64,000 nt of DNA from an uncultured Porticoccus sp. (lineage in GTDB: Bacteria > Pseudomonadota > Gammaproteobacteria > Pseudomonadales > Porticoccaceae), in the NCBI RefSeq assembly GCF_913061305.1, contig NZ_CAJXST010000003.1, forward strand, positions 248,001 to 312,000, read 5' to 3'. The translations under genes were made by a program, and so were the position numbers. The stretch's first letter is position 1. Each line of letters begins with the position of its first letter. The notes beneath the pieces were generated by a model, which ran no database searches, was not told where the DNA came from, and saw nothing but the letters and a program-made list of their open reading frames with translations. Shown here in pieces: positions 18,661 through 46,531 of this stretch.

Positions 18661-19593
18661 ATGATGACAACACTAAAATATTTATCGTTACTACCATTGG
18701 TACTGATCGGATCGCTTTACGTTTCTACCCCGGCATCGGCAACCCCGATCCTGGGTTCGGATTTGGCCAGTTTTACTGTTCTGGGTGCCTCGACGGTCAC
18801 CAATGTTCCCACAAGTACTATCGTCGGCAATGTCGGTGTCTGGTCAAGTGGTGGTGCGAATGCAATCACTGGCTTTAATTCTTCACCTGGCGTTGGGGTC
18901 TCGGACCTGCAGGTTACAGGAGGAAGCGTATACGCCGGTGGCGCACTCGCACAGTCGGCTCAAGGACAACTCACTACCGCGAGAAACAATCTTGCCTCTC
19001 TGGGAATAGGAACTGCGTTGGCGGCCGATCTGAGTGGTCTCACACTCGGGCCGGGGGTTTATACCGTTGCCGCTGGAACAACCAATTTGTCGGGAGCACT
19101 GACGCTCGACGGCGGGGGCAACGCCAATGCCGCCTGGGTGTTTCAAATGCCCAGTAGGCTGATCACCTCGCCCAACTCGGTTGTGAATGTGATCAATACC
19201 GGTTCTGGTGCAGGTGTGTATTGGAATGTTGGCAGTTCCGCAACGATCGACGTCAACACCTCATTCCTGGGGAATATTCTCGCGCTGGCTAGTATTACCT
19301 TCAACACCTCCGCATCAGATCTTTGCGGTAGAGCCCTGGCGGACACGGGTGCCGTGACTCTGGATCAGAACAACCTCTCCGGGGTTTGCATGGACACTCT
19401 GGCTGACAGCACGGGTTTGAGCGGCGGTCTTGATGTTACAAGCATGGCAGGCGAGCCGGATGTGGTTGATTTTCTTCCATTCGTTCAGGTAGGAGGTGAT
19501 GATGGAGATAGGGCCGTACCCGCGCCGGCCACGCTGATGCTGCTGGGACTGGGTCTTGCGGGACTTGGCGCTAGTCGACGTCGGCAGAATTAA
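18661..19593 (+). CDS. Ice-binding-like (DUF3494) protein with PEP-CTERM sorting signal
   Basis: This 310-residue exported protein has a signal peptide ending near ASA (residue 27). Residues about 30-240 match the DUF3494 ice-binding-like beta-solenoid: LGSDLASFTVLGASTVTN, then TTARNNLASL, then ALTLDGGGNANAAWVFQMPS, and SFLGNILALASITFN. The C-terminus is a PEP-CTERM-type sorting signal (PAPATLMLLGLGLAGLGASR) with the usual basic end, so an exosortase elsewhere in the genome should process it. DUF3494 proteins include ice-binding proteins, adhesins and extracellular matrix components; an ice function is not proven. GGATTAAGG directly precedes the ATG. Confidence 0.82.
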   Translation: MMTTLKYLSLLPLVLIGSLYVSTPASATPILGSDLASFTVLGASTVTNVPTSTIVGNVGVWSSGGANAITGFNSSPGVGVSDLQVTGGSVYAGGALAQSAQGQLTTARNNLASLGIGTALAADLSGLTLGPGVYTVAAGTTNLSGALTLDGGGNANAAWVFQMPSRLITSPNSVVNVINTGSGAGVYWNVGSSATIDVNTSFLGNILALASITFNTSASDLCGRALADTGAVTLDQNNLSGVCMDTLADSTGLSGGLDVTSMAGEPDVVDFLPFVQVGGDDGDRAVPAPATLMLLGLGLAGLGASRRRQN

Positions 19594-26865: not shown

Positions 26866-28227
26866 ATGCTAATAGCAACTAATCCCTATAACGGACAACA
26901 GCTCGAAGTTTTCCCCTCACTTGATAAAAATCAAATGTACGCCCGCATTGGTGATGCAAGCGCCGCCTTTACGGGGTGGCGCACCACAAGCTTTGCCGAG
27001 CGCGCCAACGTGCTGAAAGCCGTCGCCAAACAATTGCGCGCCGAAAAAAATGGCATTGCCGAATTAATGGCACTGGAAATGGGCAAGCCTATCAAAGAAG
27101 GCGTTGCGGAAGTCGAAAAAGCAGCGACCTGCGCCGAGTATTACGCCGACCATGCCGAGACCTATCTGGCCGACGAGACCCTGCCATCCGATGCCAGCCT
27201 TAGTTATGTGACCTATCAGCCGCTCGGTACCCTGCTGGGTATTTTGCCGTGGAATGCACCATTGTGGCTGGCGTTCCGCTATTTGGCACCGGCACTGATG
27301 GCTGGCAATACCTGTGTGATGAAACATGATCCGCATGTACCGCGATCTGCCCAGGCGATTGCCAACGCATTTTTAAAGGCCGGTGCACCGGATAATATTA
27401 TGGTCAACCTGCCACTGGAAACACCGGAAGTGGAACTGGCGATTCGCGATCCACGCATAGCGGCAGTGTCGTTTACCGGCTCCAACAGCGCGGGCAAACA
27501 AGTGGCGGCCATAGCCGGCAGTGAAGTTAAGCCCTGTGTATTGGAACTCGGCGGTTCGGATCCAGTACTGGTATTAAACGATGCCGATCTCGAACAAGCG
27601 GCGGATATTATCTGCCTGTCGCGGATCATTAATGCCGGCCAGTCCTGCATTGCTGCCAAGCGGGTAATCGTTGAGACGGATGTCCATGATCGTTTTATCG
27701 AGCTGGTCGAACAGCGACTTGGCAAGTTACGGCTTGGTGATCCCCTGCAGGCCGACACGGATATCGGCCCAATTGCCCGTGAGGATCTACAGCTGAACCT
27801 GCACCGTCAGGTCGAAGAGACGGTTGCTGCCGGTGCAAAATGTCTGTTGGGCGGTCACTTGCCGGAAGATGCCGGGTTCTTCTATCCGGTGACATTACTG
27901 ACTGGTGTGACACCCAACATGTGCGCCTTTCGGGAGGAAACTTTTGGACCGGTGATGGTGATCATCAGGGCGGATGATGTTGATCAGGCACTTGAAATGG
28001 CCAATGACACTGAATATGGCCTGGGTGCCGGGATCTGGACAGAAAATGCCTCGCTGGCAAAATCACTGGCTTTACAAATCGACTCTGGTCAGGTGGCCAT
28101 TAATGGCATTGTTAAAACCGATCCACGACTGCCCAGTGGCGGGATCAAAGGTTCCGGTTATGGCCGTGAGCTGGGGCCGCAAGGGATTAGAGAATTTGTT
28201 AATGCCAAGCAGATTTGGATCAAGTGA
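26866..28227 (+). CDS. doeC: Aspartate-semialdehyde dehydrogenase DoeC (ALDH family)
   Basis: This 453-residue NAD(P)-dependent aldehyde dehydrogenase is of the succinate-semialdehyde type. The catalytic glutamate is in LELGGSDPVLVLNDAD, the nucleophilic cysteine in NAGQSCIAAKRV, and the cofactor motif in SFTGSNSAGKQVA. In the ectoine route it oxidises aspartate semialdehyde to aspartate, the last step. The ATG at 26866 is preferred because TGAGGA precedes it by six bases and begins at the doeA stop; an upstream in-frame ATG would overlap doeA. Symbol by context; by sequence alone a generic SSADH would also fit. Confidence 0.82.
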   Translation: MLIATNPYNGQQLEVFPSLDKNQMYARIGDASAAFTGWRTTSFAERANVLKAVAKQLRAEKNGIAELMALEMGKPIKEGVAEVEKAATCAEYYADHAETYLADETLPSDASLSYVTYQPLGTLLGILPWNAPLWLAFRYLAPALMAGNTCVMKHDPHVPRSAQAIANAFLKAGAPDNIMVNLPLETPEVELAIRDPRIAAVSFTGSNSAGKQVAAIAGSEVKPCVLELGGSDPVLVLNDADLEQAADIICLSRIINAGQSCIAAKRVIVETDVHDRFIELVEQRLGKLRLGDPLQADTDIGPIAREDLQLNLHRQVEETVAAGAKCLLGGHLPEDAGFFYPVTLLTGVTPNMCAFREETFGPVMVIIRADDVDQALEMANDTEYGLGAGIWTENASLAKSLALQIDSGQVAINGIVKTDPRLPSGGIKGSGYGRELGPQGIREFVNAKQIWIK

Positions 28228-28567
28228 TTAGTGCAAACCGGCTGTGAAAGCCAAGTGGTGCTGCCAAATGGTCTGGTAAGCTCACGGGTCATCCTGATAG
28301 GCGAAAAGAAGGCAGCCAGAGATGGAGTTTCATGACTCTGCTGCTCCCATGAGTTGTTACGGGGCATAGTGCGAGAATTAGGGACGTGGGACGATAGTAA
28401 ATCTATTCGGTGGGTGGGGTGGTTTTTCTAAGCCTTCTTGCACAGCCTGATCATGACCGAAAGCCTACGTCCAGCAGCGTACATTGTGACTTACACTGGA
28501 AGCTTTTTTCATCACGAAAAGCTAGAGGAGCACATCGGATAACTCCTTAAACTCATTGCTCTGGAGA
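28228..28567. other. 340-base gap between convergent doeC and the helicase operon
   Basis: The two gene blocks converge here, so terminators are expected. One hairpin (AGCTTTT at 28501-28507 with AAAAGCT at 28517-28523) is U/A-rich on both strands and lies close to the end of the minus-strand operon. No gene, integrase remnant, tRNA or direct repeat was recognised. Base composition changes from the doe genes to the AT-richer operon across this gap. Confidence 0.4.
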
Positions 28568-29989
28568 CTATAGTTTACTGAGAGAACCAATATCTCTGGG
28601 GTTTTCAAAAGAGATTATTCCTCCTACGTACTCCTGGACCAGCCTTTCCGCTAATTCCACCATCTTTTGATCAGTAGTTATGTAACCCACTGGAAGGCTG
28701 ACGGGTAGGCTCTCAGGCCTGGATATGTGATAGCAAACTACGACCATATGCCCAGACAGAAGCAACACTTCAACATTCCCATCCATAAACCCTTCGACTA
28801 GCGCATGAGCGTTAGACAGATGATCTGAAAACACCTGCTTCCAGCGACCAATAGCCCTGCGGTCGTCCGAATCTTGCACCGGAAGATAGAGCTTTGGATT
28901 ATATAGGCGAATTGTGCTTTTCCCTTTAGTGACCGCGCGATCTACAATTTCGCTGAAACACGCAGAAATTCTGAGACTCTGCCCCCAGAATCCGTCAGAT
29001 GGGGCAATCCATACTAAATCAGCTATATGATCGTTGCTCTTTTTTAGATCATCTAAATATCGCTCGAAATAACCGCTGACCAATTGCCAGTTATCTTTCG
29101 AATAGAGCGGTCCGACAAAGGGCGTCCATTTCCCCCCATCTAACTCTCCAGACTGCTGACCAAGCATTAGTTTCACAATATCAACAGAATGATCGTTGAA
29201 AAGTGTTCTTGTCTTCTGATCGCCGAATGCTGCCATCGCCTCCCCAACCTGTTTAAAGTTCATTGGTTTTTGTGCTGAGGCGATAGCATCAGTAACCAAC
29301 TCCTGGATGGCAGATGACTCATCCAAAGTATCAAAGCCATCTCGTTCGACAGGTATCCCCTCTGGGTCAATAGTAAACAAACTGGTTAGCCTAAGCGGCT
29401 CTTGTCCCAATTTTCGAACTGACTCCATGGTATAAATACTTGGCCTGCCCGGCTCGTCGTCGAAGGATTTGTGCTCCCAAAAACCCTGCTCCTGAATCTT
29501 ATGGAAGTTCTTCTGAAACTTACGCTTCGCTAACCGCTCGCTGTTGGCAACAGTCTCATTTGGCACTTCTAACTGCAAACCCGATACCCATTTCTCGCCG
29601 GTGCGTTTTCTGCCTACACAGTTAAAACCAGCCAATTCGAATGCAAATTGGCCACCGCTCTCAAGCAGCGATGAAACTAAGGGCGTCGAGCCTAACCCGA
29701 CAAAATATCCCCGAGATTTAGACGTAAGATCAATCTGACCATTTTCGGAAAACTGTAGATCTCCCTTGTCGACTAGATCGCTGACCGCCTCCTCAACCTC
29801 AATTTTAGAAAATCCAAAAAAAGTGGCGAGATCAGTCAGTATCATCGGAGAGATATGAACAAGTCTGAGTACGAACTCTCTGGTGAACGGAAGACCCTTT
29901 TTAGTCACATACGAAAATCGGATATCGAATCGATGAACCGGCAGCAGAAAATCCACTTCATGGTAAGCGATGTTAAGTTCCTCACTCAT
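28568..29989 (-). CDS. Partner of the NERD/kinase/helicase protein; winged-helix N-terminus, PLD-like C-terminus
   Basis: This 473-residue protein is encoded directly after the 1660-residue protein with a four-base ATGA overlap. Residues about 45-90 (ILTDLATFFGFSKIEVEEAV, then LVDKGDLQF) look like a winged-helix DNA-binding unit. The C-terminal third has the beta-strand and helix order of a phospholipase D-like half (WIAPSDGFWG, VEVLLLSGHMVVVCYHIS, VPLP-like run, VGYITTD), but the HxK motif is missing: the histidine is followed by Met-Val. If it is the equivalent of the MkoB nuclease of type I Mokosh, its catalytic motif is degenerate. Composition is AT-rich like its partner. Function inferred from linkage only. 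Confidence 0.5.
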   Translation of the reverse strand: MSEELNIAYHEVDFLLPVHRFDIRFSYVTKKGLPFTREFVLRLVHISPMILTDLATFFGFSKIEVEEAVSDLVDKGDLQFSENGQIDLTSKSRGYFVGLGSTPLVSSLLESGGQFAFELAGFNCVGRKRTGEKWVSGLQLEVPNETVANSERLAKRKFQKNFHKIQEQGFWEHKSFDDEPGRPSIYTMESVRKLGQEPLRLTSLFTIDPEGIPVERDGFDTLDESSAIQELVTDAIASAQKPMNFKQVGEAMAAFGDQKTRTLFNDHSVDIVKLMLGQQSGELDGGKWTPFVGPLYSKDNWQLVSGYFERYLDDLKKSNDHIADLVWIAPSDGFWGQSLRISACFSEIVDRAVTKGKSTIRLYNPKLYLPVQDSDDRRAIGRWKQVFSDHLSNAHALVEGFMDGNVEVLLLSGHMVVVCYHISRPESLPVSLPVGYITTDQKMVELAERLVQEYVGGIISFENPRDIGSLSKL

Positions 29990-32900
29990 TTTCTACGCAC
30001 TCCTTGATCGTTGCTCACTTGTGAAGTTACAAATCGATATCCTCCATCCTGACCTTTCTCTTCCATGAAGCTTGAAACACGCCCAAGCGGTAAACGCTTG
30101 TTGTTTGAGCGCCACATCTGTACCGAGCCAACAATCAACAATCGGTCCATTGCACGAGATAGAGCTACATTTATCCGATTTGGAGCCCTAAGGAAGCCAG
30201 GACTCTGCCGCTGATCAGAACGAGTGAGAGATAGAATAATGATTCTGTTTTCCTTGCCTTGATAGCTATCGACAGTATCTATCTTCACCAGCGACCTGAA
30301 ATCCTCATCCCACTGAACTTCATTAAATTTCTGCCTAAGCAGTCTCTTTTGCTCGCCATACATGCATATCACTCCAATGGCTGGCTCCTCTTCTTTGACC
30401 AACGATTTGAGCTCATAGACAAAATTGCGATCTTCTGCCACTTGCTTTAGTAAGTTAATGATAAGGTCCGCCTCACACCGGTTATAAATACTTACACCTT
30501 TATCGGCTTGATGGTACGCCCGATGCCCCAATCCTGACGTATCCATCCATGTTACAGGTGATTGCAAAACCTCTGGCAAATGGCTGTATATTTCCGGGAT
30601 CACTCGATCTCCGTTTTCCAATTTTCCATCGTAGAAAGCGTTCGATACGAGATTCCCAATTTCTGGAGCCATTCGATATTGTGTTAGCAGCGTTGCACCA
30701 ACATGATCGCCAAAGCTTGATTCAAAAGCGCGAGCGAAGTCGCTTTGAAGCATGATGTCTAAATCACTTTCAACTGAAGAAATTCCAAGCCTTCGGGCAA
30801 GAGCTTTTTTATGCGGAGCCGTATATAGCGGCGGCAGTTGCTGATGGTCCCCGACCAATAGGATTCGCTTACCAGCTTGCATAGCGATAGCCAGCTCACT
30901 TGCTATCGAACGAGCGGCCTCATCGATTATGACCCAATCATATTGATTCTCTCGAATACCGATGTGGCGCTGCCCAATACCTACACAGGTACCGGTTACC
31001 AACTGACGGGATCTTGCAAGAAACTCATCATAGTTAACCTCGTCAGTTTCCAGTACATCCAGCATATCTCTGGAAACTTTCGCGAGCGCCTTAGCTCGCA
31101 ATGACTCGTCTGGTCTTACTGCGTAATCGCGGTTTAACTTTTCAATCACTCGTTGCTTGGCCGATTCGTGGTTTTCATCCTTTCCAAGATCAATTCCAAA
31201 CTCATCCTGCAATGACCCGCGAATCGATTCATCCAATTCAAGCAACGATTTCTTCAGTTGCTTCTCGTCCTCATTTTCCATCTCGTGGTCAATGAGAGAT
31301 TTCATTGATGAGTTAAAGTGATCTATTTGCCTAAAGAGCTTTAGCTCGGCACTGACCAGATCAGATAAGTAACGAGGCTGCAGGCCCAATGCCCTGCCAA
31401 GTGCAGCTACTCTATGCCTTGCCTCGGCTCGGAACAGCTCTCTCTTTTCCGCAATAATTGAGTTTGAATATACGTCCTTTAGCCCGGTAGAAACTGCGCC
31501 TTCTCGGTTACTGAAGCGGACGACTTCAAGTTTGGTCTCTAACCTTGCACAGTGGTTTCGTATCCTCTCGGCAGCCGTATTGACGGCTTCGTGAGACTGA
31601 CTCACCAGCAGCACCCTCTGTACACTCTGCTTCTCGATCAAATAGTGCACAAAGGCGGCTATAAACTCTGTTTTACCGGTTCCGGGAGGGCCTTGCAAAA
31701 GAGATACGGGACCATTCCGTATAAGCCTCTGGAAGGCTCCGCGTTGCTGATCATTTAGGCTTATTTTATTACCTTGATCATCGGTTCGATCGTATCGAGA
31801 AAAATCATCTTCGGACACAACAATGTCATAGGTTATAGCGGGTAATGTACAAGCTGGGTCGAAGTACGAAACAAGGTCACTGATTACCCCCTCCTTGTCC
31901 AGAAGACACTTCAGGGCAGCCTTTCTCTTTTCGTACGAAGCGCGGTCCTGTTTGGTACGAAAGAAAACTAGATCGCCTTCAGATAGGGAGTGAGCCTTAA
32001 AGCGTAACTTGGACAGTCGGACTTCATTCAGTGCAGATTGCTTTAGTATAACTTCCCCTATTGGAGTTTCCTTCTCACCCACGATAGTCAATGCTTCAAT
32101 GCAATCGGACTTGCTAAAGTGTCCCAAAGCATCAATGTCTGCGCGATAGGGTATGATCAGTTGGTCTTTTGAATCTTTGACCTCCCGTGCACTTCCAGAA
32201 ACTTCTATGTAGGGATACGACTCAGTTTCCGTTTCAAGAATTGCCTTCCAGAGATTCGCAGTAGATATCTTTAACTGCGGTTCGCTCTGCTCACTTTTTT
32301 CTTGCTGTAATCTTTCAAAGGCGTTCTTCATCTCAAGAGTTAAATCGTCAGCAGCAACAACTTCGGATACATCTTCCTTGAGCGCAAGATCCACCGCAAG
32401 AATAAAGCTCTCGTTAGATTCAAGTCTTTTCGACAGTTCAGAGAGGTCATGCACTCTTCCAGGAGCAATACTAATCGGAAAGTCCAGTTCCAGATGACTG
32501 TTATCAGCATCGGAGCGTCGTATAGAAGATCTAACTCGTGGCTTAAATCCGACAACAAAGGCCCTATCTTTTGTACTAAAGATTAAGTCTACGCTACCTC
32601 CAATGCCAAAAATCCGAACACGAGCATCTAACCGTTCTTTTTTGCTCGACTCAATCTGGAGATAGAGATGGCCGTTATCCGGGTAGATAGTGACCGGTTC
32701 AAAATCACCTCTCAGCATGACCTTGACGGGTTCAACCAAGTCACTTTCCGGTGCATCAATGACCGATTTAAAGCGGGAAAGATCCTTAAACCCATAAAGA
32801 GAATCTGTTAGCTCCTGATCAACAGCATTAGCAATTTCTTCATATTCGGAAGACTCTTCTCCCCATCTCAAGCCTAGTAGCTCACAAGCCATTCGCATAA

Positions 32901-34968
32901 CAGCGAAGTTGTCTCGCTCAAACGCAGTGCAGGTATCTATGTTGTCGGGGCTATATCGATGATTGAACATCTCCGCTGAATCTTCGCAGTAATCAGGGAT
33001 ATCGATCAATGAGAGGAAATATTCGCCGCCCTCCTGGCCGACGATTACATTCCCCGGGTGGAGATCTCCGTGCGGGATATGCATAGTATGCAAATGTTCT
33101 ACAGACTCAATGAGCTTTTTTATAACAACCAACTTATCTTCTTCATTGATATCCAAATCATTCCAATGGAATCCCTCCGCTTTATCCATAACCAAATAAA
33201 GACTGGAGGATTTCGTCGCAATACCAAACTCCCTTATGCAAGGAATATAGGGCGGAGATACCGTTTTAAGTTTTTCTATCCGCCTCAAAAAATGGAGAAG
33301 TTTGTAGCCCGCAGGGTCGCTATTGTCGATAGAACCAATGTTCAGCCACGCTTTTACAATCTGACCATTAGACAGGTATATCTCCCTCTCTTCTGTCTCT
33401 ACCAGAAACTCATCATCCTCTCTGAATTGCCGCGAATGGTTTATCGATTTCCTGTACGGTTCCAGTTCAGACTGATCGAAAACTGCCTGGCTCTCATCGA
33501 CGGGTTCCGCCTCCTTGAGCGCATCAAAAAATTCGGTGGCATTTGAGAAAAACCCACGCTGTAGCGCTCTGAGAATAACAGGAGCATAGAAAATCTCACT
33601 TTGTTCCAAATCTCTTTCTATACTATCTACACTTTTTGGCGAGATACGCTGAGCCGTAAGGATGTGCCAAGAAATCAGCCCCAGCGCGTAAACATCGGCC
33701 TCGTATGGCGTCTCGACAGCTTCCTGGCCAGCAGCAACACACACATCGTTAACGGAAAGTAACTGCCGATAATCGCCAACAGTCCCTACCGGTTTATGAT
33801 AGGCAGATATAAAGTTGGAAAGAGCCACCTCTTTACTTGGTGATATCCAAATACTGTGATCACCTAGGTCTCGGTGCGCAACGTTAATTTGATGCAAGTC
33901 AGCAAATTTGGCGACAAGCAGCTTCATCAGATTTGAACGATCGCTATCAGAAAATGACGGCCCGTATTTGCCAATGAATTCATTGAATCTTGCATGGTTA
34001 GGCGGAAGCTCGTAGACCTCCGAGTATTCGGTAGTAACTTCATCTTTCTGAACGCTGGTTAATGAGCGAAGGCAGTGCTTATACAGATCATGATCCTGAT
34101 GCTTAATGAACTGCAGCACCTCACGCTCGCGGGATACAATCGCGAACCGACCATCTGTTGTCTTTGCTTTAACTCCATCTAGTTTGTCAAAATTCCACAG
34201 CCGTAATAGCGCTTCATCACCTCTGGATATCTCAGATACGGCCTGAAATTCCTTATAGACTTTGCGTGGATGTTCAAATATGAGGGCAGTAGCTTTGTAA
34301 CCATCAATTCGAATATGTTTTGGTGCTGTATTGTTTCCTAGGAATAGCTTGTCGAAAACATCGAAGTCCTGGTTCAGTACTTTAGCTTTCGGATGAGGTC
34401 TGAACTTCTTGTTAAATATATCTTCGTCAGAAAACTCCAAGAATTCTGCAAGACTTAATGTGTGGCTTTTCTCTTGATCCCTGATTTTTTCAAATCGTGC
34501 ATTTCCAGTCATCAGAACCAAATGATGAATGAAAGGCGTACGCCCGTCGTTACTGAACTTATTCCGAATGCGGTCGAGCTTATTCTTCAGCAAATAGACC
34601 TTATTCTGAGTGACGCTGACGGGAGAGCGGCCCATGTCTACATCATTTTTGTACCAACGGTCACCACAGGATACGACCTCGCCGTTATTCCAGTCTTTGA
34701 GCTCAATAATCAGTACATTACAGTGGGTGACGATAACGAGATCGAACTCACCTTCATTTCCTTTTGCGTCAACAAACCGAAAGCCCGCATACCCCTTCCA
34801 GGGTAAGATTGGATTGCCCCCTAAACTTCGTAATTGATCTTTTAGTGAGCCACTGCTCGCCGACTTCGATCGGCTCGAAATTGGCTTGGCGGAAAACGCT
34901 TCCTGAATAGATTCAATCGCCTTAATTTCCTGCGACTGCAAGCCGCCTTCCCACAGTTTGACTTCCAT
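29986..34968 (-). CDS. NERD nuclease-like, pseudokinase, kinase and SF1 helicase fusion (Mokosh MkoA-like)
   Basis: This 1660-residue multidomain protein begins with a NERD domain (about residues 45-175) carrying EFDLVIV and VLIIELKDW, the D and E-x-K of the nuclease fold. A first kinase-like domain (about 200-490) has HRDLGDHSIW but lacks the DFG aspartate (ALSNF), so it is probably a pseudokinase. A second (about 520-740) has VKAW, HGDLHPGNVIV and SLIDIPDY, so catalytic residues are present. After a linker region comes a UPF1/Dna2-type SF1 helicase: GPPGTGKTEF near 1095, VIIDEAARS near 1345, VGDHQQLPPLY near 1367, TQYRMAPEIG, VDSYQGKENRIII and NVALSRAMDRLLIVG near 1600. The kinase plus COG1112-type helicase arrangement resembles MkoA of the Mokosh anti-phage system. 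AAGGG lies seven bases before the ATG. Confidence 0.75.
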   Translation of the reverse strand: MEVKLWEGGLQSQEIKAIESIQEAFSAKPISSRSKSASSGSLKDQLRSLGGNPILPWKGYAGFRFVDAKGNEGEFDLVIVTHCNVLIIELKDWNNGEVVSCGDRWYKNDVDMGRSPVSVTQNKVYLLKNKLDRIRNKFSNDGRTPFIHHLVLMTGNARFEKIRDQEKSHTLSLAEFLEFSDEDIFNKKFRPHPKAKVLNQDFDVFDKLFLGNNTAPKHIRIDGYKATALIFEHPRKVYKEFQAVSEISRGDEALLRLWNFDKLDGVKAKTTDGRFAIVSREREVLQFIKHQDHDLYKHCLRSLTSVQKDEVTTEYSEVYELPPNHARFNEFIGKYGPSFSDSDRSNLMKLLVAKFADLHQINVAHRDLGDHSIWISPSKEVALSNFISAYHKPVGTVGDYRQLLSVNDVCVAAGQEAVETPYEADVYALGLISWHILTAQRISPKSVDSIERDLEQSEIFYAPVILRALQRGFFSNATEFFDALKEAEPVDESQAVFDQSELEPYRKSINHSRQFREDDEFLVETEEREIYLSNGQIVKAWLNIGSIDNSDPAGYKLLHFLRRIEKLKTVSPPYIPCIREFGIATKSSSLYLVMDKAEGFHWNDLDINEEDKLVVIKKLIESVEHLHTMHIPHGDLHPGNVIVGQEGGEYFLSLIDIPDYCEDSAEMFNHRYSPDNIDTCTAFERDNFAVMRMACELLGLRWGEESSEYEEIANAVDQELTDSLYGFKDLSRFKSVIDAPESDLVEPVKVMLRGDFEPVTIYPDNGHLYLQIESSKKERLDARVRIFGIGGSVDLIFSTKDRAFVVGFKPRVRSSIRRSDADNSHLELDFPISIAPGRVHDLSELSKRLESNESFILAVDLALKEDVSEVVAADDLTLEMKNAFERLQQEKSEQSEPQLKISTANLWKAILETETESYPYIEVSGSAREVKDSKDQLIIPYRADIDALGHFSKSDCIEALTIVGEKETPIGEVILKQSALNEVRLSKLRFKAHSLSEGDLVFFRTKQDRASYEKRKAALKCLLDKEGVISDLVSYFDPACTLPAITYDIVVSEDDFSRYDRTDDQGNKISLNDQQRGAFQRLIRNGPVSLLQGPPGTGKTEFIAAFVHYLIEKQSVQRVLLVSQSHEAVNTAAERIRNHCARLETKLEVVRFSNREGAVSTGLKDVYSNSIIAEKRELFRAEARHRVAALGRALGLQPRYLSDLVSAELKLFRQIDHFNSSMKSLIDHEMENEDEKQLKKSLLELDESIRGSLQDEFGIDLGKDENHESAKQRVIEKLNRDYAVRPDESLRAKALAKVSRDMLDVLETDEVNYDEFLARSRQLVTGTCVGIGQRHIGIRENQYDWVIIDEAARSIASELAIAMQAGKRILLVGDHQQLPPLYTAPHKKALARRLGISSVESDLDIMLQSDFARAFESSFGDHVGATLLTQYRMAPEIGNLVSNAFYDGKLENGDRVIPEIYSHLPEVLQSPVTWMDTSGLGHRAYHQADKGVSIYNRCEADLIINLLKQVAEDRNFVYELKSLVKEEEPAIGVICMYGEQKRLLRQKFNEVQWDEDFRSLVKIDTVDSYQGKENRIIILSLTRSDQRQSPGFLRAPNRINVALSRAMDRLLIVGSVQMWRSNNKRLPLGRVSSFMEEKGQDGGYRFVTSQVSNDQGVRRK

Positions 34969-35029
34969 ATTCAGCCCTTAATCCGAAGTACCTAAGTAAA
35001 TTGCCTGCGATAGGATTAATCGTCCCACT

Positions 35030-35620
35030 CTAATCTGCATCTCCAGATCGCCGCACTCTCTCTACCACTTGAGCTGCCTGCTGACTATCTATCCCCGCCC
35101 CATGTATTCCGTTAGTTTTGGCTCTGAGATCCTCAACACCCAGCGCTTCCGTCAACGTATCTAACGACGGTCCCCTCTGGCTGCACGGGAGATTCATCGC
35201 CTGCGCCCAAGCAATAGCGGCTTTCTGGCTGCAAAATACACCTTGAATTGGCGGCATTGGCAAACCGTATCGGGCAACGTGATCCAGCAGGATTGGCCAG
35301 TCAAAACTGGCATTGTGGATGACTATCAGTTGTTCTATTAGGTATTCCGCGATCTGGTTCCATTGGGAATCAAAGGAATCAAATTCTGCAGCCTGTTCGT
35401 TGGTAATACCGTGTATCGACTGTGCTTCTTCTGAAATGTTTTTTTGTGGCCGTGTTTTAAACTCGATGGATTCCGCTACCTCTCGATTTCTCACCACGGT
35501 GATGCCAAGTGTCACGATATCCGGCGGGCCGTTTTCGTCAGGGAGTCCGGTGGTTTCGGTATCGAGGACGATGTAATCGTCCGGGAGTTGGGTGAAGATC
35601 CACAGCAGCTCTTTATACAT
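35030..35620 (-). CDS. DnaQ-like DEDDh 3'-5' exonuclease
   Basis: This 196-residue protein has all exonuclease motifs of the DEDDh class: VLDTETTGLPDENGP (D and E), IVIHNASFDWPILL (D) and HGAGIDSQQA (H and D). It is shorter than the DNA polymerase III epsilon subunit and lacks its polymerase-binding tail, so it is a stand-alone nuclease of DNA or RNA. The ATG at 35620 is chosen because AGGAGG lies eight bases upstream; GTG 35629 and ATG 35626 are too close to that site. The preceding RES gene stops at 35626, eight bases before this start, and the helicase gene begins 61 bases downstream. Confidence 0.85.
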   Translation of the reverse strand: MYKELLWIFTQLPDDYIVLDTETTGLPDENGPPDIVTLGITVVRNREVAESIEFKTRPQKNISEEAQSIHGITNEQAAEFDSFDSQWNQIAEYLIEQLIVIHNASFDWPILLDHVARYGLPMPPIQGVFCSQKAAIAWAQAMNLPCSQRGPSLDTLTEALGVEDLRAKTNGIHGAGIDSQQAAQVVERVRRSGDAD

Positions 35621-35625
35621 TGCCA

Positions 35626-36330
35626 TCACCTCCTGCCACGGCCGCCACTATTGCCATCGAGGGATTCAACGTTGACGATCGTCCCCTGGTCATAGTGGTA
35701 GCGCAGATAGCGCCAGTGGATCGCATCGGACAACACTCGGGCACGCATCACGCCGTAGCACTCCCCTTTCGTTCTCACGCTTTGGTAGTGAACACCAAAG
35801 CTTTTGGCATCGCGTAACGCGTAACCGAGCTGCTGGGCTTCAGCGTAGTCATCAGGATGGTAAATAGCGTGTCCGGCCAGGTGCCGCACATCGTGAAGAG
35901 TTGTCGGTCCCAACTGCGCACGAATCACGCGCATTTCCTGGGTGGTCTTGTGGATTCGGGATTCCCGCAGAAAGCGCGCCCGATGGAAGGACGATTCAGC
36001 GATGGCGACTGCCTCATCGGCAGCGCAGTAATAGATACCGAAGTCCCGGTTGAAGCGACCGCCCCGTCTGTCCACCGGCAGATGAGTGAAGGTAGCCATG
36101 ATCCAGGAGGCACCATCGCCATAGACGCGGTCTTCCGACGGCACCAGACGAATATCGCCGACTTCATCGCGCAGCCGGGGGTTAGTCAGGGACTCGACGG
36201 CGTAGAGCACATCCCAATCCTGTGGATTGGAGACACGCTCGAACAGGTGGATCTGCGGGTAGCGCGCCAGTATGACCCGATAGACCGGTTCATTGACCTC
36301 GCTACTGGGTAGCGTATCGATTGCGATCAC
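35626..36330 (-). CDS. RES-domain toxin
   Basis: This 234-residue protein carries the RES domain: YRVI near the N-terminus, GGRFNRDFGIYYCAADEAVAI with Arg and Tyr, and AESSFHRARFL with Glu. RES toxins of Xre-RES modules degrade NAD+, which halts growth or kills the cell unless the antitoxin is present. The GTG start overlaps the antitoxin stop (GTGA), so the two are translationally coupled. The family is clear. Activity is not shown by sequence alone. Confidence 0.88.
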   Translation of the reverse strand: MIAIDTLPSSEVNEPVYRVILARYPQIHLFERVSNPQDWDVLYAVESLTNPRLRDEVGDIRLVPSEDRVYGDGASWIMATFTHLPVDRRGGRFNRDFGIYYCAADEAVAIAESSFHRARFLRESRIHKTTQEMRVIRAQLGPTTLHDVRHLAGHAIYHPDDYAEAQQLGYALRDAKSFGVHYQSVRTKGECYGVMRARVLSDAIHWRYLRYHYDQGTIVNVESLDGNSGGRGRR

Positions 36331-36728
36331 CAGCCACCCCGCGCCGCATCAAGGAAATTCCTCACCACCGCCAGATCGACCACATGGCCCGCCAGTAACC
36401 GGTCCAGCGGTGCGGTGCCATTGAACAGCGGATTGTCGTTAGGAGTGCCCAGCCACTGGTCGGCCAACGCCTGGTCGGGCAACAGGATTTGCAGGGATTT
36501 GTAGATCCCCAAAATGTAGCTGGTCCGTTCCAACAGGTCTCGCGTCAGCTTGGCCTTCTCGGGTTGGCTCTTCCAGTTATAGAGGGTCTTCTCGTTGCTG
36601 AGCCCCAGCAGTGTCATCTGCTGGGCGCCGGTCAGACGCCATTGGCTGAAGATATTGAAAATCGCCGGCAGCAAGGAACTGGTGACACTGGAGCCCCGTT
36701 GCAGCAGTTGCTCGGCTTGAGCGATCAT
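36327..36728 (-). CDS. Xre/MbcA/ParS-type antitoxin of the RES pair
   Basis: This 133-residue protein has an N-terminal helix-turn-helix region (LTGAQQMTLLGLSNEKTLYNW) and a C-terminal MbcA/ParS/Xre toxin-binding domain (WLGTPNDNPLFNGTAPLDRL and VVRNFLDAARGGW). It should bind and neutralise the RES toxin and repress its own promoter. Two perfect inverted repeats of the same sequence lie 25-77 bases upstream of its start. AGGAGG precedes the ATG. Confidence 0.88.
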   Translation of the reverse strand: MIAQAEQLLQRGSSVTSSLLPAIFNIFSQWRLTGAQQMTLLGLSNEKTLYNWKSQPEKAKLTRDLLERTSYILGIYKSLQILLPDQALADQWLGTPNDNPLFNGTAPLDRLLAGHVVDLAVVRNFLDAARGGW

Positions 36729-36752
36729 GATTACCTCCTAAGCAGCACTTAT

Positions 36753-36805
36753 ACTGTATTTTTACAGTGCTTAAATGCAGCCTAACAGACTGTAATAATA
36801 CAGTC
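36753..36805 (-). promoter_or_regulatory. Two identical palindromic operators upstream of the Xre/RES operon
   Basis: ACTGTA-TTTT-TACAGT occupies 36753-36768, and GACTGTA-ATAA-TACAGTC occupies 36788-36805. The shared core is ACTGTA-N4-TACAGT, and the centres are 36 bases apart. Read on the minus strand, the upstream copy contains TTGACT, a likely -35 box. Paired identical sites in the promoter of an Xre-RES module are expected for binding by the HTH antitoxin or the toxin-antitoxin complex. The pattern is directly visible; the binder is inferred. Confidence 0.65.
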
Positions 36806-36884
36806 AATTGTGTCAGGGATACTTTTTGAAACCTCTGGCACTAATGTCAGTGGAAAGTAAATATTGCTTAGCAATACCTGTAAC

Positions 36885-36913
36885 AAAAAAGCCCAGCGAA
36901 AATGCTGGGCTTT
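36885..36913 (-). terminator. Intrinsic terminator (minus strand)
   Basis: GCCCAGC (36891-36897), a six-base loop and GCTGGGC (36904-36910) form a perfect stem, followed on the minus strand by six U residues (A-run at 36885-36890). It ends transcription from the metE side before the Xre/RES promoter. A fair A-run on the other side could also serve the plus strand. Confidence 0.8.
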
Positions 36914-37013
36914 GAAAACTTTCCCCCTCTGTTGCTGCCAGAAGTTGCCTGCCAGTACCGCGTCGCCCCCTCCCACTCGATGGTAAATAATAAGCATTTA
37001 ATTTACTTTATTT

Positions 37014-37124
37014 TCATTTAGTTACAAATCGACGCATCTCTAACAGCATGCTCAAAATGGACTTTAAGGCGGCAAAGACTTTCGGGGCTATAGGATCCAG
37101 AAAAAATTGTTCTCGATCAAACAT
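37014..37124 (-). CDS. Possible 36-residue protein downstream of metE
   Basis: This short ORF would encode a 36-residue peptide beginning MFDREQFFLDPIAPKVFAAL and ending in a basic tail (LEMRRFVTK). GGAGG sits eight bases before its ATG, the best ribosome-binding site spacing in this neighbourhood. It lies 61 bases after metE in the same direction and before the terminator at 36885-36913, so it could be on the metE transcript. A 20-base GC-rich palindrome (37145-37165) separates the two. The helix-forming segment KVFAALKSILSMLLEM is amphipathic. No family recognised; it could be a remnant. Confidence 0.35.
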   Translation of the reverse strand: MFDREQFFLDPIAPKVFAALKSILSMLLEMRRFVTK

Positions 37125-37144
37125 TGATAGCGCCTCCAAGTAGT

Positions 37145-37165
37145 ATCCCGGCCCTGGGCCGGGAT
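37145..37165 (-). promoter_or_regulatory. Strong palindrome after metE
   Basis: ATCCCGGCC-CTG-GGCCGGGAT forms a nine-base-pair hairpin 21 bases after the metE stop codon. There is no U-tract, so it is more likely an mRNA 3'-stabilising structure or a weak terminator than an efficient intrinsic terminator. Confidence 0.5.
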
Positions 37166-37185
37166 TATGAGGTCATTGAAATCGG

Positions 37186-39465
37186 TTAACCGGCATTTTT
37201 GCGAAGCGTCTTGGCCGCCGACACCATGTTTTGCAACGCCGGGATAACTTCCTCCCACTGGCGGGTTTTGAGTCCGCAATCGGGATTGACCCACAGCCGT
37301 TCGGCCGGAATACGTTCCGCTGCCTTCGTCATTAACTTCACCGCCTGTTCGACCGAGGGGATATTGGGTGAGTGGATATCGTATACACCGGGGCCAATTT
37401 CGTTCGGGTACTCAAACTCCTCGAACACGTTCAGTAGCTCCATATCCGAGCGCGAGGTTTCAATCGTAATCACGTCGGCGTCCATGTGGGCGATGGCTTC
37501 GATGATGTCGTTAAACTCGGAATAGCACATATGGGTGTGAATCTGGGTTTCATCAGCGACACCATTGGCCGCAATTCGGAAGGACTCCACTGCCCAGTCG
37601 AGATAGCTCTGCCACGCTGATTTACGCAGTGGCAGGCCTTCACGCAACGCGGCTTCGTCAATCTGGATAATGTTGACACCGGCGGCCTCCAGATCCAACA
37701 CTTCCTGGCGAACCGCCAGAGCCAGTTGCAGGCAGGACTCACTGCGCGGCTGGTCGTCACGCACGAAGGACCAGTTGAGAATCGTGACCGGTCCGGTCAG
37801 CATGCCTTTCATCGGTTTGTCGGTGAGCGACTGGGCGTATTGGATCCATTCAACGGTCATCGCTTTGGGTCGACTGATATCGCCGAACAGAATCGGCGGC
37901 TTGACACAGCGCGAGCCGTAGGACTGCACCCAGCCGAACTGACTGAATGCATAACCTTCCAACTGCTCGCCAAAGTATTCCACCATGTCATTGCGCTCGG
38001 CCTCGCCATGTACCAGCACGTCCAGCCCCAGCTTTTCCTGTTCACTCACGGCGTGTTCAATCTCGGCCCTCATGGTTGCGGTGTATTGTTCCGCAGACAT
38101 TTCCTGTTTCTTCAGGGCCAAGCGCGCTTTGCGGATATCCGGCGTCTGTGGGAAGGAGCCAATGGTCGTCGTCGGATACAGGGGCAACTTCAGGTGCGCG
38201 CGCTGTTTGGCAATGCGCTCAACATAGGGGCTCTGACGTTGGCCCAACTCGGCGGTTATATTTTTTACAGTCGCTTTGACTTGTGGATTGTGTACCCGCT
38301 CAGAATTTTTACGGCTGTCGACAGCCACCTTGTTGGCGGCCAGTTCATCACCAACTGCTGCACGACCTTGGTTGATCGCCTTGCCCAGCACCGAGAGCTC
38401 CGCCAGCTTCTGTTTGGCAAAGGCCAACCAGCTGCGGATATCGGTATCGAGCTTCTGTTCACTGTCCAGATCCACCGGCACATGCAACAGCGAGCAGGAC
38501 GGCGCGATCCACAGACGCTCACCAAGTTTTTGGGCGACCGGTTCCAGCCAGTCGAGGGTGGCATTCAGGTCGGTCTTCCAGATGTTGCGGCCATTGATCG
38601 CACCCACCGACAACACCTTGTACTCCGGCAACCAGTCCAGTACGACTCTCAATTCATCACGACCACGCACGGCATCCACATGCAGCCCGTCCACAGGGAG
38701 GTTACAGGCGAGTCGGAGATTCTCTTTCAACGTGCCGAAATAGGTGGCCAGCAGCAGTTTGACACGGCTGGACCTCAGAACATGATAGGCAGTTTCAAAC
38801 GCACGTTGCCAATCCTCGTCCAATTCAGTCACCAGGGCGGGTTCATCTATCTGCACCCATTCAGCGCCGGCGTCAGCCAGTTTGTCCAGCAACTGTCCGT
38901 ACACCGGCAACAATTTAGACAGTAGGTCCAAGCGGTTGGAAGTATCTTTTTCCTTGCTCAGCCACAAATAGGTCACCGGGCCAATAATCACCGGCTTGGC
39001 TTTAACCCCTGCGGCCTGCGCTTCAGCCAGCTGACTCAGGATGCGTTCGGCATTCAGTGAGAACGTGGTATTCGCAGTAACTTCTGGGACAATGTAGTGG
39101 TAGTTAGTGTCAAACCATTTGGTCATCTCGCCGGCGTGGATACAGTTGCAGTCCGTATCATTGGCAGAGCGGCCACGGGCCACGCGGAAATAATTGTCCA
39201 GTTCGCTACCCTCCAGGCCCTCTACCCGGTCGGGCAGATTGCCGAGGGTAAAGCTCATATCCAGCACCTGATCATAGAGGGAGAAATCGCCTACCGGCAC
39301 CCAGTCCAGTGCCTGCTGAGCCTGCCAGTTGTGAGTGCGAAGTTGTTTTGCCGTGCCCAGTAATTCTGCGTCGGAAGCCTGGCCTTTCCAGAACGTCTCC
39401 AGGGCAAATTTCAGTTCGCGCCTTGCGCCAATACGGGGGAATCCAAGATTGTGAATCAAAGCCAT
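37186..39465 (-). CDS. metE: Cobalamin-independent methionine synthase MetE
   Basis: This 759-residue enzyme transfers the methyl group from 5-methyltetrahydropteroyltri-glutamate to homocysteine to form methionine, without vitamin B12. The N-terminal domain begins [21 protein letters not shown]. The catalytic zinc ligands are in HTHMCYSEF and [11 protein letters not shown] near the C-terminus. Length is as in E. coli. It is divergent from metR with 112 bases between them, and no cobalamin riboswitch fits in that gap. MetR presumably activates it. Confidence 0.97.
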
Positions 39466-44695: not shown

Positions 44696-45124
44696 GAGAA
44701 AATAGCAACAGGGCGTACCGGAGTCCATTCCATTAGCGGGCTGTTACTTGGACTGACAAGCGATCCTGAATAATTTAAATCCTATGTTGAATCGCAGTAG
44801 TAAATAACAGAAGACAAACAGTGACCAAAGTAATAACCCACATCATGTTTCAAGGCGATGCGAATAAATTCATCCCCAGTGAATACTCTGTGCGCCTGCT
44901 CTTCACGAATGGTCTCGATCAGAACAATATACCGATGTAGTGTTGTTATGATCTGGTGAATGTACTTCATAATACGAACAATCCTTGTCGATGACGTGCT
45001 ATCGCGATCAGTGGCAACGTAGAATTAGATTAAGCACTTTAAACGATCTTGCTGCCACATTCCCACGATGGGGAAGAAAAACCACGCCTCAGAATTTTAT
45101 TTATATAATTCAATAGAATACAGG
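44696..45124. other. Gap of about 430 bases with one weak minus-strand ORF
   Basis: The region is AT-rich in its second half and contains no terminator or repeat of note. A 62-codon minus-strand ORF (44782-44970) has only a distant AAGGA upstream. Beyond this nothing supported is seen up to the palindromic promoter of the Fic module. Confidence 0.35.
44782..44970 (-). CDS. Weakly supported 62-residue hypothetical protein
   Basis: The ORF would encode MKYIHQIITTLHRYIVLIET followed by a charged middle and a His/Cys/Tyr-containing end. No family is recognised. AAGGA lies about 13 bases before the ATG, which is too far for a strong site. It is divergent from the Fic module and convergent with the SRPBCC gene. 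It may be a chance ORF in AT-rich DNA. Confidence 0.2.
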   Translation of the reverse strand: MKYIHQIITTLHRYIVLIETIREEQAHRVFTGDEFIRIALKHDVGYYFGHCLSSVIYYCDST

Positions 45125-45174
45125 TATTCCAATCAGTATAGACATTGGAATATTTGGCTATTGCACGTTATAAT
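45125..45174 (+). promoter_or_regulatory. Promoter with palindromic operator for the YhfG-like/Fic operon
   Basis: TATTCCAAT (45125-45133) and ATTGGAATA (45144-45152) form a perfect nine-base inverted repeat separated by ten bases. The second arm contains TTGGAA, a possible -35, and a perfect TATAAT -10 follows at 45169-45174 with 18-base spacing. A bound regulator would block the -35. The winged-helix protein encoded just downstream is the obvious candidate. Confidence 0.65.
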
Positions 45175-45208
45175 GCCTATATAAGCATCTTATATGGAGC
45201 GCTTTCAC

Positions 45209-45676
45209 ATGAACTACGAAATGGCTGTACTAGCCGCCCTTGTTCAACTGGATAAGCCTACCCGCCCCAAGATCACCGAGGAGACGGGTATCTCTGCCCA
45301 ACGGGTCAATACCGCGATCAACTACCTCAAAGACCTTCTCAATATCGGTATCTACTGGCATGGCGCTAAGAAAACCGGCTATTACCAAATTGAGTCATGG
45401 GGCGCCTTTGAAAGTGGTAAATCCATCCGCCGCAAAGCCTATGCGCTGGATCTGAGCATTTATAAAACGGAGAGAACCTTTGAGTACAACGCTCTGCGTT
45501 TTAAGAAGCATTACGCCAACGAGGTGAAGCTACAAAACTACCGACACAGTCTGAAGCTGGAGGGTTTTGATACACCAACCTCTCACCCCTCAACCCGCAG
45601 CCCTGAAGAACGTGCGGAACGCCGTGCAGCCTTAAAGAAAAAATACACCAAACCCCAGCTAAGTGCGGCACGCTAG
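45209..45676 (+). CDS. Winged-helix protein with YhfG-like C-terminus, Fic partner
   Basis: This 155-residue protein combines two parts. Residues 1-70 form a winged helix-turn-helix (EMAVLAALVQLDKPTRPKIT, then GISAQRVNTAINYLKDL). Residues about 95-125 (FKKHYANEVKLQNYRHSLKL, then EGF) resemble YhfG, the small antitoxin-like partner of class I Fic proteins, whose core contains N-x-x-x-S-x-x-LEG. E. coli YhfG is only about 55 residues and has no DNA-binding domain, so here an autoregulator seems fused to the antitoxin. ATG 45209 is chosen because GGAG lies nine bases before it. The fic gene follows after one base. Confidence 0.65.
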   Translation: MNYEMAVLAALVQLDKPTRPKITEETGISAQRVNTAINYLKDLLNIGIYWHGAKKTGYYQIESWGAFESGKSIRRKAYALDLSIYKTERTFEYNALRFKKHYANEVKLQNYRHSLKLEGFDTPTSHPSTRSPEERAERRAALKKKYTKPQLSAAR

Positions 45677-45677
45677 G

Positions 45678-46280
45678 ATGGCGCTGGATAAATATGGCAC
45701 TGGCGATGATCCCTACTGCTACCCCGGTAGCAATGTATTGCGAAATCTCCTGAATATTGAGGACGATGAAGAACTGGCCGAAGCTGAGGCCGAATTGACT
45801 GAGCTAGCTGTTGGAGAAATTGAATTCGACGCTCCCCCGTATGATCTGGACTATTTCCAGTCTCTTCATCGACAGGTCTTTGAGGATGTTTATGAATGGG
45901 CAGGTGAACTTCGCAGCATTGATATGTCAAAAGGGACCACGCGCTTTTGCACCTGTAAGCGTATTGAGCCAGAAGCCAACAAATTGTTTCGGCAGCTAGC
46001 CGATCAAAACTATTACGATGACTATGAACGGGAGGCCTTCGTTGCAGCCATCGCTGAGTTCTATATTGAGATGAATATGGTTCACCCCTTTCGCGAAGGC
46101 AATGGCCGTGCTCAGCGGCTTTTGTCCGAGCACATCATTATCAATGCAGGCTTCGAATTTGATCTTGAAGGTATTACGCAACAAGAGTGGGTAGCAGCTA
46201 ATATCGCTGGTGTAAGTTGTGACTATGAGCCTATGACTGCGTTGTTTGATCGTTGTATTGGAGCTTCGTTAAACGATTAG
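45678..46280 (+). CDS. fic: Fic-domain adenylyltransferase-type protein
   Basis: This 200-residue protein resembles FicA of E. coli: GDDPYCYPGSNVLRNLLNI at the N-terminus, LHRQVFEDVYEWAGELRSID, and the complete catalytic motif HPFREGNGRAQR (His, acidic residue and the two Arg present). Fic proteins usually AMPylate targets; class I members are kept off by a small partner protein whose helix carries the S/T-x-x-x-E/D-G motif. The YhfG-like gene directly upstream matches that role. The ATG at 45678 follows the upstream TAG by a single base, so translation is probably coupled. Confidence 0.9.
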   Translation: MALDKYGTGDDPYCYPGSNVLRNLLNIEDDEELAEAEAELTELAVGEIEFDAPPYDLDYFQSLHRQVFEDVYEWAGELRSIDMSKGTTRFCTCKRIEPEANKLFRQLADQNYYDDYEREAFVAAIAEFYIEMNMVHPFREGNGRAQRLLSEHIIINAGFEFDLEGITQQEWVAANIAGVSCDYEPMTALFDRCIGASLND

Positions 46281-46310
46281 TCTCGCGATAACTTATTGAT
46301 TTATCGATCA

Positions 46311-46461
46311 AATACCATGATTTAAAAAAGCCCTAAATACATACATAAGGTCTTTAAAATCAATATGCTATGTATTCCCAATACCATGACTCATTTGAAA
46401 CACTCTTCATGGTATTGAAGCTTGACCTTAACTAGGCCTCAGTCAATACCATGAAAAGTGT
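46311..46461. repeat. Four copies of AATACCATGA between fic and guaA
   Basis: The 10-mer occurs at 46311-46320, 46380-46389 and 46445-46454 on the plus strand and inverted (TCATGGTATT) at 46407-46416. The last two copies extend to a 19-base inverted repeat (46400-46418 against 46443-46461) with a single mismatch, and copies two and three form a second hairpin. The copies lie between the 3' ends of two convergent genes, so classical operators are not expected. Confidence 0.7.
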
Positions 46462-46531
46462 CATTAATAATGCAGAATAACTCGTCAAATAGATTTATTT
46501 TTTCTTATATATTAATGAGTTAAATTTCCGG

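What the first reader, a model, noticed from the sequence alone, without database searches (positions are those of the whole stretch)
29986..34968. NERD, pseudokinase, kinase and SF1 helicase in one 1660-residue protein
The protein combines a NERD nuclease-like domain, two kinase-like domains and a UPF1-type helicase. The first kinase lacks DFG (ALSNF) while the second keeps HGDLHPGN and a DFG-position Asp. A pseudokinase next to an active-looking kinase suggests internal sensing or autoinhibition. The outline matches MkoA of type I Mokosh (kinase plus helicase), but the NERD domain and duplicated kinase domain may mark an undescribed variant. AT-rich composition suggests horizontal transfer.
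Basis: partly seen in the sequence, partly recalled or inferred. Interest (0 to 1): 0.85.

Follow-up and report, generated by a model that had tools for sequence, protein, structure and literature searches.

The report
Mokosh defence variant with NERD nuclease
These two genes look like a bacterial anti-virus system called Mokosh, in a form where the cutting domain usually described for one protein cannot be detected and a different predicted cutting domain sits in its partner, which changes where one should look for the part that does the damage.

Summary
Observation confirmed. The 1660-residue ORF (29986-34968, minus) holds NERD, a degenerate kinase, an active-looking kinase and a UPF1-like helicase. 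It matches PADLOC's MkoA over its full length (2048.9 bits); the next gene (28568-29989) is full-length MkoB (383.7 bits). By HMM this is type I Mokosh. NERD lies inside that existing model and was listed for Mokosh in 2023, so "undescribed NERD variant" is only partly right.

What I did not find described is a nuclease exchange. Type I is described with a PLD nuclease. In the window's clade no PLD family is among the 25 of 31 Pfam families shown for 42 MkoB, while NERD catalytic residues are invariant in MkoA (17 of 17 found without NERD patterns; 79 of 79 in all). In a sister clade MkoB has two HxK motifs (9 of 9) and MkoA has no NERD (0 of 10). Kinase 1 lacks the DFG Asp in 79 of 79; kinase 2 keeps its catalytic Asp in 69 of 79. 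Likeliest effector: NERD, gated by the kinase pair and fed by the helicase.

The parts
29986..34968 (-). mkoA, NERD-type, 1660 aa
   Evidence: PADLOC MkoA PDLC03921, residues 1-1650 to model 1-1601 of 1607, 2048.9 bits
34510..34836 (-). NERD nuclease-like domain (residues 45-153); catalytic-type residues D76, E89, K91 plus invariant E74
   Evidence: Pfam NERD 1.1e-9; E74, D76, E89, K91 in 79 of 79 and in 17 of 17 found without NERD-derived patterns
33439..34293 (-). kinase-like domain 1, predicted pseudokinase (residues about 226-510; boundary approximate)
   Evidence: DFG Asp position is Ser in 79 of 79; catalytic-loop Asn position is His in 76 of 79; Arg in 79 of 79 at the position read by eye as the VAIK Lys; but the HRD Asp is kept in 79 of 79
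32734..33438 (-). kinase domain 2, active-looking (residues about 511-745; boundary approximate)
   Evidence: Pkinase 559-655; K539 and D656 in 79 of 79, catalytic D635 in 69 of 79, N640 in 72 of 79
31789..32733 (-). linking region without a family match (residues about 746-1060)
   Evidence: no Pfam match there; no profile similarity to the corresponding part of PLD-type MkoA (0.3%)
30121..31758 (-). UPF1-like SF1 helicase core (residues 1071-1616)
   Evidence: AAA_11/AAA_12; Walker A GPPGTGKT in 79 of 79, DE of motif II in 79 of 79
28568..29989 (-). mkoB, short form, 473 aa, overlaps mkoA by 4 bp
   Evidence: PADLOC MkoB PDLC03923 4-472, 383.7 bits; 42 of 42 members of a non-redundant set of the gene downstream of mkoA match the same model
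29603..29950 (-). MkoB N-terminal part shared with PLD-type MkoB (residues 14-129), probably a winged helix
   Evidence: profile-profile 96.1%, E 3.2e-9; weak winged-helix Pfam hits in some relatives
28571..29284 (-). MkoB C-terminal domain of unknown fold (residues 236-473), where PLD-type MkoB has its PLD domains
   Evidence: no PLD match; hhalign to PLD1/PLD2 0.5% and 0.3%; W327, W335, E407, P433 in 81 of 81, H421 in 78 of 81

Best explanation
The two genes are a type I Mokosh-family anti-phage system of a NERD-bearing subtype. Shown by sequence: MkoA carries NERD, a kinase-like domain without DFG Asp, a kinase and a UPF1-like helicase; MkoB shares only its N-terminal part with the PLD-nuclease MkoB of the sister subtype. 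Inferred: MkoA and MkoB form one complex; the helicase and the MkoB winged helix load on invader nucleic acid (RNA or DNA not decided); the NERD domain, a PD-(D/E)XK-type nuclease with its D...ExK kept, does the cutting that PLD does in the other subtypes; the pseudokinase and kinase couple binding to release of the nuclease, by analogy with the same three-domain module in PglW and DndF.
For: Full-length MkoA and MkoB HMM matches. NERD residues invariant in 17 of 17 MkoA found without NERD patterns and in 79 of 79 overall. No PLD among the 25 of 31 Pfam families shown for 42 short MkoB, against PLDc_2 in 9 of 9 PLD-type MkoB. A NERD profile finds 3 of 3 left-out distant NERD-type MkoA and the Leaf58 NERD-kinase ORF, but 0 of 10 PLD-type MkoA, while the helicase profile finds all 10. 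The two subtypes separate in an unrooted helicase tree (splits 0.942 and 1.0), and together are split from MkoC and other helicases with support 1.0. The NERD-kinase half scores against the MAD6 and PglW models (106.4 and 87.5 bits). Kinase 2 lost its catalytic Asp in 10 of 79, the NERD residues in none.
Against: No activity was measured and no structure model was obtained. 62 of the 79 MkoA were found with patterns from the NERD region, so their NERD conservation is partly by construction. 36 of 42 short MkoB also match PADLOC's PLD-type MkoB model at 1e-5; where the stretch was shown (window, P0010, P0011) it covers only the N-terminal half. MkoB's C-terminal domain has strongly conserved E407 and H421 of unknown role and could be an enzyme itself. 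Kinase 1 keeps its HRD Asp (79 of 79). Only 9 intact PLD-type MkoB and 10 PLD-type MkoA were read. Which nuclease is ancestral was not resolved.
Confidence: 0.6

Rival explanations
1. MkoB remains the nuclease. Its C-terminal domain is a strongly diverged PLD or a new nuclease fold, and NERD in MkoA binds or presents nucleic acid.
For: H421 (78 of 81) and G435 (80 of 81) are 14 residues apart, the H-to-G spacing of HxKx4Dx6GSxN (motif recalled); K is at +2 in 6 of 81; E407, W327, W335 and P433 are invariant in 81. The PDB search that found no PLD for short MkoB is weak evidence, since even PLD-type MkoB found only three phospholipases at 0.0014-0.0056.
Against: The Lys of the motif is absent in 75 of 81 at that position and GSxN is not kept; profile comparison with PLD1 and PLD2 gives 0.5% and 0.3% while PLD1 against PLD2 gives 97.9%; no PLD among the 25 of 31 Pfam families shown for 42 members.
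Confidence: 0.2
2. The second kinase is the effector: infection releases it to phosphorylate host or phage proteins and stop growth; NERD is regulatory or a back-up.
For: K539 and D656 are kept in 79 of 79 and D635 in 69 of 79; models of PD-T4-6, recalled as a kinase defence protein, score against kinase 2.
Against: 10 of 79 lack the catalytic Asp while keeping NERD and helicase residues; in the sister subtype the single kinase-like domain lacks the catalytic Asp in 9 of 9, read by eye from an alignment.
Confidence: 0.13
3. The genes are not a defence system but serve nucleic-acid quality control of the host.
For: UPF1-like helicases act in RNA decay (recalled); one search shows them as nearest solved relatives.
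Against: Patchy: in 369 class genomes only the window's own MkoB-short is full-length, the other 16 matching genomes score 18-29 bits over short stretches; relatives on 150 plasmid records and near an integrase in a Pseudomonas phage record; beside a methyltransferase, helicase and GIY-YIG nuclease in E. coli G5.
Confidence: 0.04

Closest known systems
Mokosh type I (MkoA + MkoB), PADLOC models PDLC03921 and PDLC03923
   Same: full-length match of both proteins, same gene order, overlapping genes
   Different: the published description names a PLD nuclease for type I (passage of PMC11672841); none is detectable in MkoB here
Mokosh type I, PLD-type (PDLC03920 + PDLC03922)
   Same: helicase core and MkoB N-terminal part are homologous (hhalign 100% and 96.1%); kinase 2 profile resembles its kinase-like domain (97.2%)
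   Different: no NERD (0 of 10), one kinase-like domain without catalytic Asp (9 of 9), MkoB with two HxK motifs (9 of 9; Asp of the second kept in 8 of 9) and PLDc_2 (9 of 9)
PglW of BREX type 2, DndF of DndFGH, MAD6 of MADS
   Same: NERD followed by inactive and active kinase is described for PglW and some DndF (passages); MAD6 and PglW models score over residues 67-453 and 56-441
   Different: scores far below the curated cutoffs (106.4 against 460; 87.5 against 990); followed here by an SF1 helicase and partnered with MkoB; no DndF model was compared
Mokosh type II (MkoC)
   Same: related SF1 helicase (111.6 bits)
   Different: MkoC is a single protein; two of three full or near-full MkoC fetched were inspected and both have an HKD motif near the C-terminus

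Membership tests
Mokosh type I (HMM definition) | full-length MkoA match | tested here: met
   PDLC03921, 1-1650, 2048.9 bits
Mokosh type I (HMM definition) | adjacent full-length MkoB | tested here: met
   PDLC03923, 4-472, 383.7 bits, 4-bp overlap
Mokosh type I (published domain description, passage of PMC11672841) | COG1112-type RNA helicase | tested here: met
   AAA_11/AAA_12 and UPF1/NAM7-type nearest solved sequences; COG1112 itself not searched
Mokosh type I (published domain description, passage of PMC11672841) | serine-threonine kinase domain | tested here: met
   Pkinase 5.8e-12; kinase 2 of the window keeps the catalytic residues
Mokosh type I (published domain description, passage of PMC11672841) | PLD-family nuclease in the second gene | tested here: not met
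   no PLD hit in the window's MkoB; none among the 25 of 31 families shown for the set of 42; hhalign 0.5% and 0.3%
Mokosh type I | anti-phage activity | not testable with these tools
   needs plaque assays
BREX type 2 PglW | full-length PglW above curated cutoff | tested here: not met
   87.5 bits against 990, residues 56-441 only
MADS MAD6 | full-length MAD6 above curated cutoff | tested here: not met
   106.4 bits against 460
Mokosh type II | helicase and PLD in one protein (MkoC) | tested here: not met
   MkoC 111.6 bits, best stretch 1341-1635 only; no PLD among Pfam families of P0001
DndF | P-loop nucleotide kinase core after the kinase module | not tested
   no DndF model was compared; an SF1 helicase follows here

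The most novel reading that the evidence does not exclude
Type I Mokosh consists of two sister subtypes that keep the same helicase and MkoB N-terminal part but exchange the effector: a PLD nuclease in MkoB in one, a PglW/DndF-like NERD + pseudokinase + kinase cassette in MkoA in the other. The cassette would then be a plug-in effector unit used by several defence families (BREX type 2, DndFGH, Mokosh and, from its model score, perhaps MADS), and the usual statement that Mokosh acts through PLD would not hold for the subtype found here and in E. coli.
Probability: 0.6. Interest if true: 0.65.

Novelty: new variant of a known kind. Interest (0 to 1): 0.5.

Why it matters
The description of type I Mokosh that I could read names PLD as its nuclease. 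If the clade carried by the window, by many plasmids and, judged by DNA similarity to a NERD-type pair, by 332 of 5426 complete E. coli genomes lacks it, experiments and reviews look at the wrong active site. The split seen so far (NERD with short MkoB, PLD with long MkoB) gives a direct test of whether two unrelated nucleases can be driven by the same helicase chassis, and whether the NERD-pseudokinase-kinase module is a transferable effector.

Tried and rejected
Undescribed fusion: rejected, since PADLOC's second MkoA model covers the whole protein and NERD in Mokosh type I is in print. Duplicated kinase as unique: rejected, the module is described in PglW and some DndF. DEDDh exonuclease and RES/Xre as Mokosh components: by tblastn (E 1e-3) against the loci held, the window's DEDDh protein matches only the window's own genome (L001), and its RES and Xre match only L001 and L030, a locus fetched for a PLD-like hit; RES-family genes of other sequence are annotated in three PLD-type loci, so the link is weak rather than excluded. 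Direct repeats at island borders: only short imperfect ones in 27900-37400, nothing convincing. Degenerate PLD in MkoB: the 14-residue H-G spacing suggested it, profile tests did not support it; kept as a rival. hmmsearch with the kinase 1 and kinase 2 profiles found only 1 of 10 PLD-type MkoA, weakly (L135, 1.3e-4), although hhalign relates them. A genome scan with P0001 alone found nothing, with alignment A1 it found 74 loci; the one viral-contig scan that ran gave none. First hhalign run was in a wrong mode and was repeated; a tree script failed and was repeated.

Rows dropped: 12 of the 74 genome loci gave no intact MkoA (6 not recovered, 6 under 1600 aa), 9 gave no MkoB, 3 short MkoB pieces were left out. 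L044 (mkoA cut by an IS) and L052 (split gene) were left out of the MkoA table. Pfam scans used 42 of 81 MkoB and 41 of 79 MkoA. The tree used 24 of 79 NERD-type helicases, 9 PLD-type, and 6 others of which three (L145-L147) are not shown to be MkoC. I read 16 of 150 plasmid records with MkoB-short matches (some of the 150 match only half of the protein), and 7 of 48 with PLD-type matches plus one more (L149) from a second query.
Full report
Observation. The ORF at 29986-34968 (minus strand) encodes 1660 residues. Pfam finds NERD at 45-153, protein kinase in two stretches, and AAA_11 and AAA_12 of an SF1 helicase; the nearest solved sequences are UPF1/NAM7-type helicases. The next gene, 28568-29989, overlaps by 4 bp and encodes 473 residues.

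Identity. PADLOC matches the large protein to MkoA model PDLC03921 over its whole length (2048.9 bits) and the small one to MkoB model PDLC03923 (383.7 bits). The other MkoA model's best stretch is residues 898-1639, and the other MkoB model matches only residues 12-238. The locus is therefore type I Mokosh by HMM. A 2023 paper lists NERD for Mokosh type I in a table (PMC10952713, passages); it was the only paper found that holds both words. Papers on BREX and Dnd systems describe NERD, inactive kinase and active kinase in a row in PglW and in some DndF (PMC12839542, PMC10853773, passages); the word Mokosh occurs in neither text. The NERD-kinase half here scores against MAD6 (106.4 bits, cutoff 460) and PglW (87.5 bits, cutoff 990).

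Relatives. tblastn with MkoB found 150 plasmid records, 127 with at least 80% cover. I fetched 16 of these and two phage records. In 16 of the 18, MkoA of 1626-1730 residues is followed by MkoB of 460-526 residues; in L044 an IS splits mkoA, and in L052 NERD-kinases and helicase are separate ORFs. A scan of named genomes with the MkoA N-terminal alignment gave 74 loci, by record title mostly Gamma- and Betaproteobacteria. In complete E. coli genomes, DNA similar to the Citrobacter mkoAB is present in 332 of 5426, 309 with at least 80% cover, 335 of 337 places chromosomal; I read one of them (E. coli G5), which has the NERD, HRD, HGD and YH motifs. The subtype is patchy: of 369 genomes of the class only the window's own has a full-length MkoB-short; 16 others have weak partial matches.

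Residues. In 79 intact MkoA, NERD E74, D76, E89 and K91 are invariant. Because 62 of these came from a scan that used patterns from the NERD region, the fair number is 17 of 17: the window, 14 plasmid loci found through MkoB and two phage-record loci found with the whole protein. Kinase 1 has Ser at the DFG Asp in 79 of 79, His at the catalytic Asn in 76 of 79, and Arg at what I read by eye as the VAIK Lys in 79 of 79; it keeps the HRD Asp in 79 of 79. Kinase 2 keeps K539 and D656 in 79, D635 in 69, N640 in 72; the 10 without D635 are from Acinetobacter or a phage record named for it (L047, L048, L053, L106-L110, L113, L121). Walker A and the motif II DE are 79 of 79.

The missing PLD. [quoted passage not shown] In the window MkoB no Pfam family reaches E 0.1, and among the 25 of 31 families shown for the set of 42 there is no PLD. 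Two full-length long MkoB were found among 398 phylum genomes, and 48 plasmid records matched one of them. In the 9 intact loci read (L131-L139), MkoB has two HxK motifs in 9 of 9, with the Asp of the second kept in 8 of 9 (not in L131), and PLDc_2 in 9 of 9. Their MkoA (1111-1199 residues) has one kinase-like domain whose catalytic Asp is replaced in 9 of 9 (read by eye); of the two scanned, Pkinase reaches its cutoff in one. A NERD profile found 3 of 3 left-out NERD-type controls and 0 of 10 PLD-type MkoA (the nine and one of TTH0-4), while the helicase profile found all 10. Profile comparison joins the helicases (100%) and the MkoB N-terminal parts (96.1%), but MkoB-short's C-terminal part does not match PLD1 or PLD2 (0.5%, 0.3%; control PLD1 to PLD2 97.9%). 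Against a clean split: 36 of 42 short MkoB match the PLD-type MkoB model at 1e-5, but in the three whose stretch was shown the match is N-terminal. The helicase tree, unrooted, separates the subtypes (0.942, 1.0) and splits both from MkoC and other helicases (1.0); I cannot say which effector came first.

Mechanism. Shown: domain content, invariance, exchange of nuclease domains. Inferred: NERD is the effector, the helicase and MkoB sense or load on nucleic acid, the pseudokinase and kinase gate the nuclease. That NERD residues are never lost in this set while kinase 2 sometimes loses its catalytic Asp argues for NERD over kinase as the essential effector. Against it stand the conserved E407 and H421 of MkoB. 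H421 and G435 lie 14 apart, as in HKD motifs (recalled), but the other motif residues are missing in most, so a diverged PLD is kept as a rival; the PDB search offers little here, since it barely finds phospholipases for the PLD-type MkoB either.

Setting. MkoA and MkoB have 45.6% and 46.1% GC against 53.5% for the window; the neighbouring RES and Xre genes do not share this (58.6%, 59.0%). ARAGORN finds no tRNA in the window and no convincing flanking repeats were seen. Acquisition by transfer is likely but not shown.

Limits. No structure model could be made. The original Mokosh paper is not held; what I know of its experiments is recalled, and I do not know which subtype was tested. Print searches were made, in openly licensed papers only, and papers were read as passages; within these I found no description of the NERD/PLD exchange.

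Noticed in passing
window 35030-36728, minus strand: Xre antitoxin, RES toxin and a DEDDh exonuclease with 4-bp overlaps, 61 bp upstream of mkoA on the same strand; apart from the window's own genome only L030 matches the RES and Xre proteins among loci held.
   Followed up: yes
window 45194-46280, plus strand: A Fic-like protein (45663-46280) behind a small ORF in a second low-GC patch (46.4% for 45001-47000); family recalled from the motif, not searched.
   Followed up: no
window 18661-19593, plus strand: Secreted protein with a PEP-CTERM-like tail that resembles ice-binding (DUF3494) proteins by eye; not searched.
   Followed up: no
L047 and L149 (plasmid NZ_MT742182.1): One Acinetobacter plasmid carries both subtypes: NERD-type mkoAB and, elsewhere, a PLD-type pair whose mkoB is interrupted by an IS3 element.
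   Followed up: partly
L052 1331-6294: In Pseudomonas sp. Leaf58 the NERD-kinase part and the helicase are two overlapping ORFs, so the module may be separable.
   Followed up: partly
L055 14911-16674: Methylobacter MkoB has a Cys-rich C-terminal extension (587 aa in all) that looks like zinc ribbons by eye.
   Followed up: no
L047, L048, L053, L106-L110, L113, L121: Ten MkoA from Acinetobacter or an Acinetobacter phage record have lost the catalytic Asp of kinase 2 (Arg in 9, His in 1) while keeping NERD and helicase motifs.
   Followed up: partly
L135, L136, L138: RES-family genes are annotated near PLD-type Mokosh in three alphaproteobacterial plasmids.
   Followed up: no
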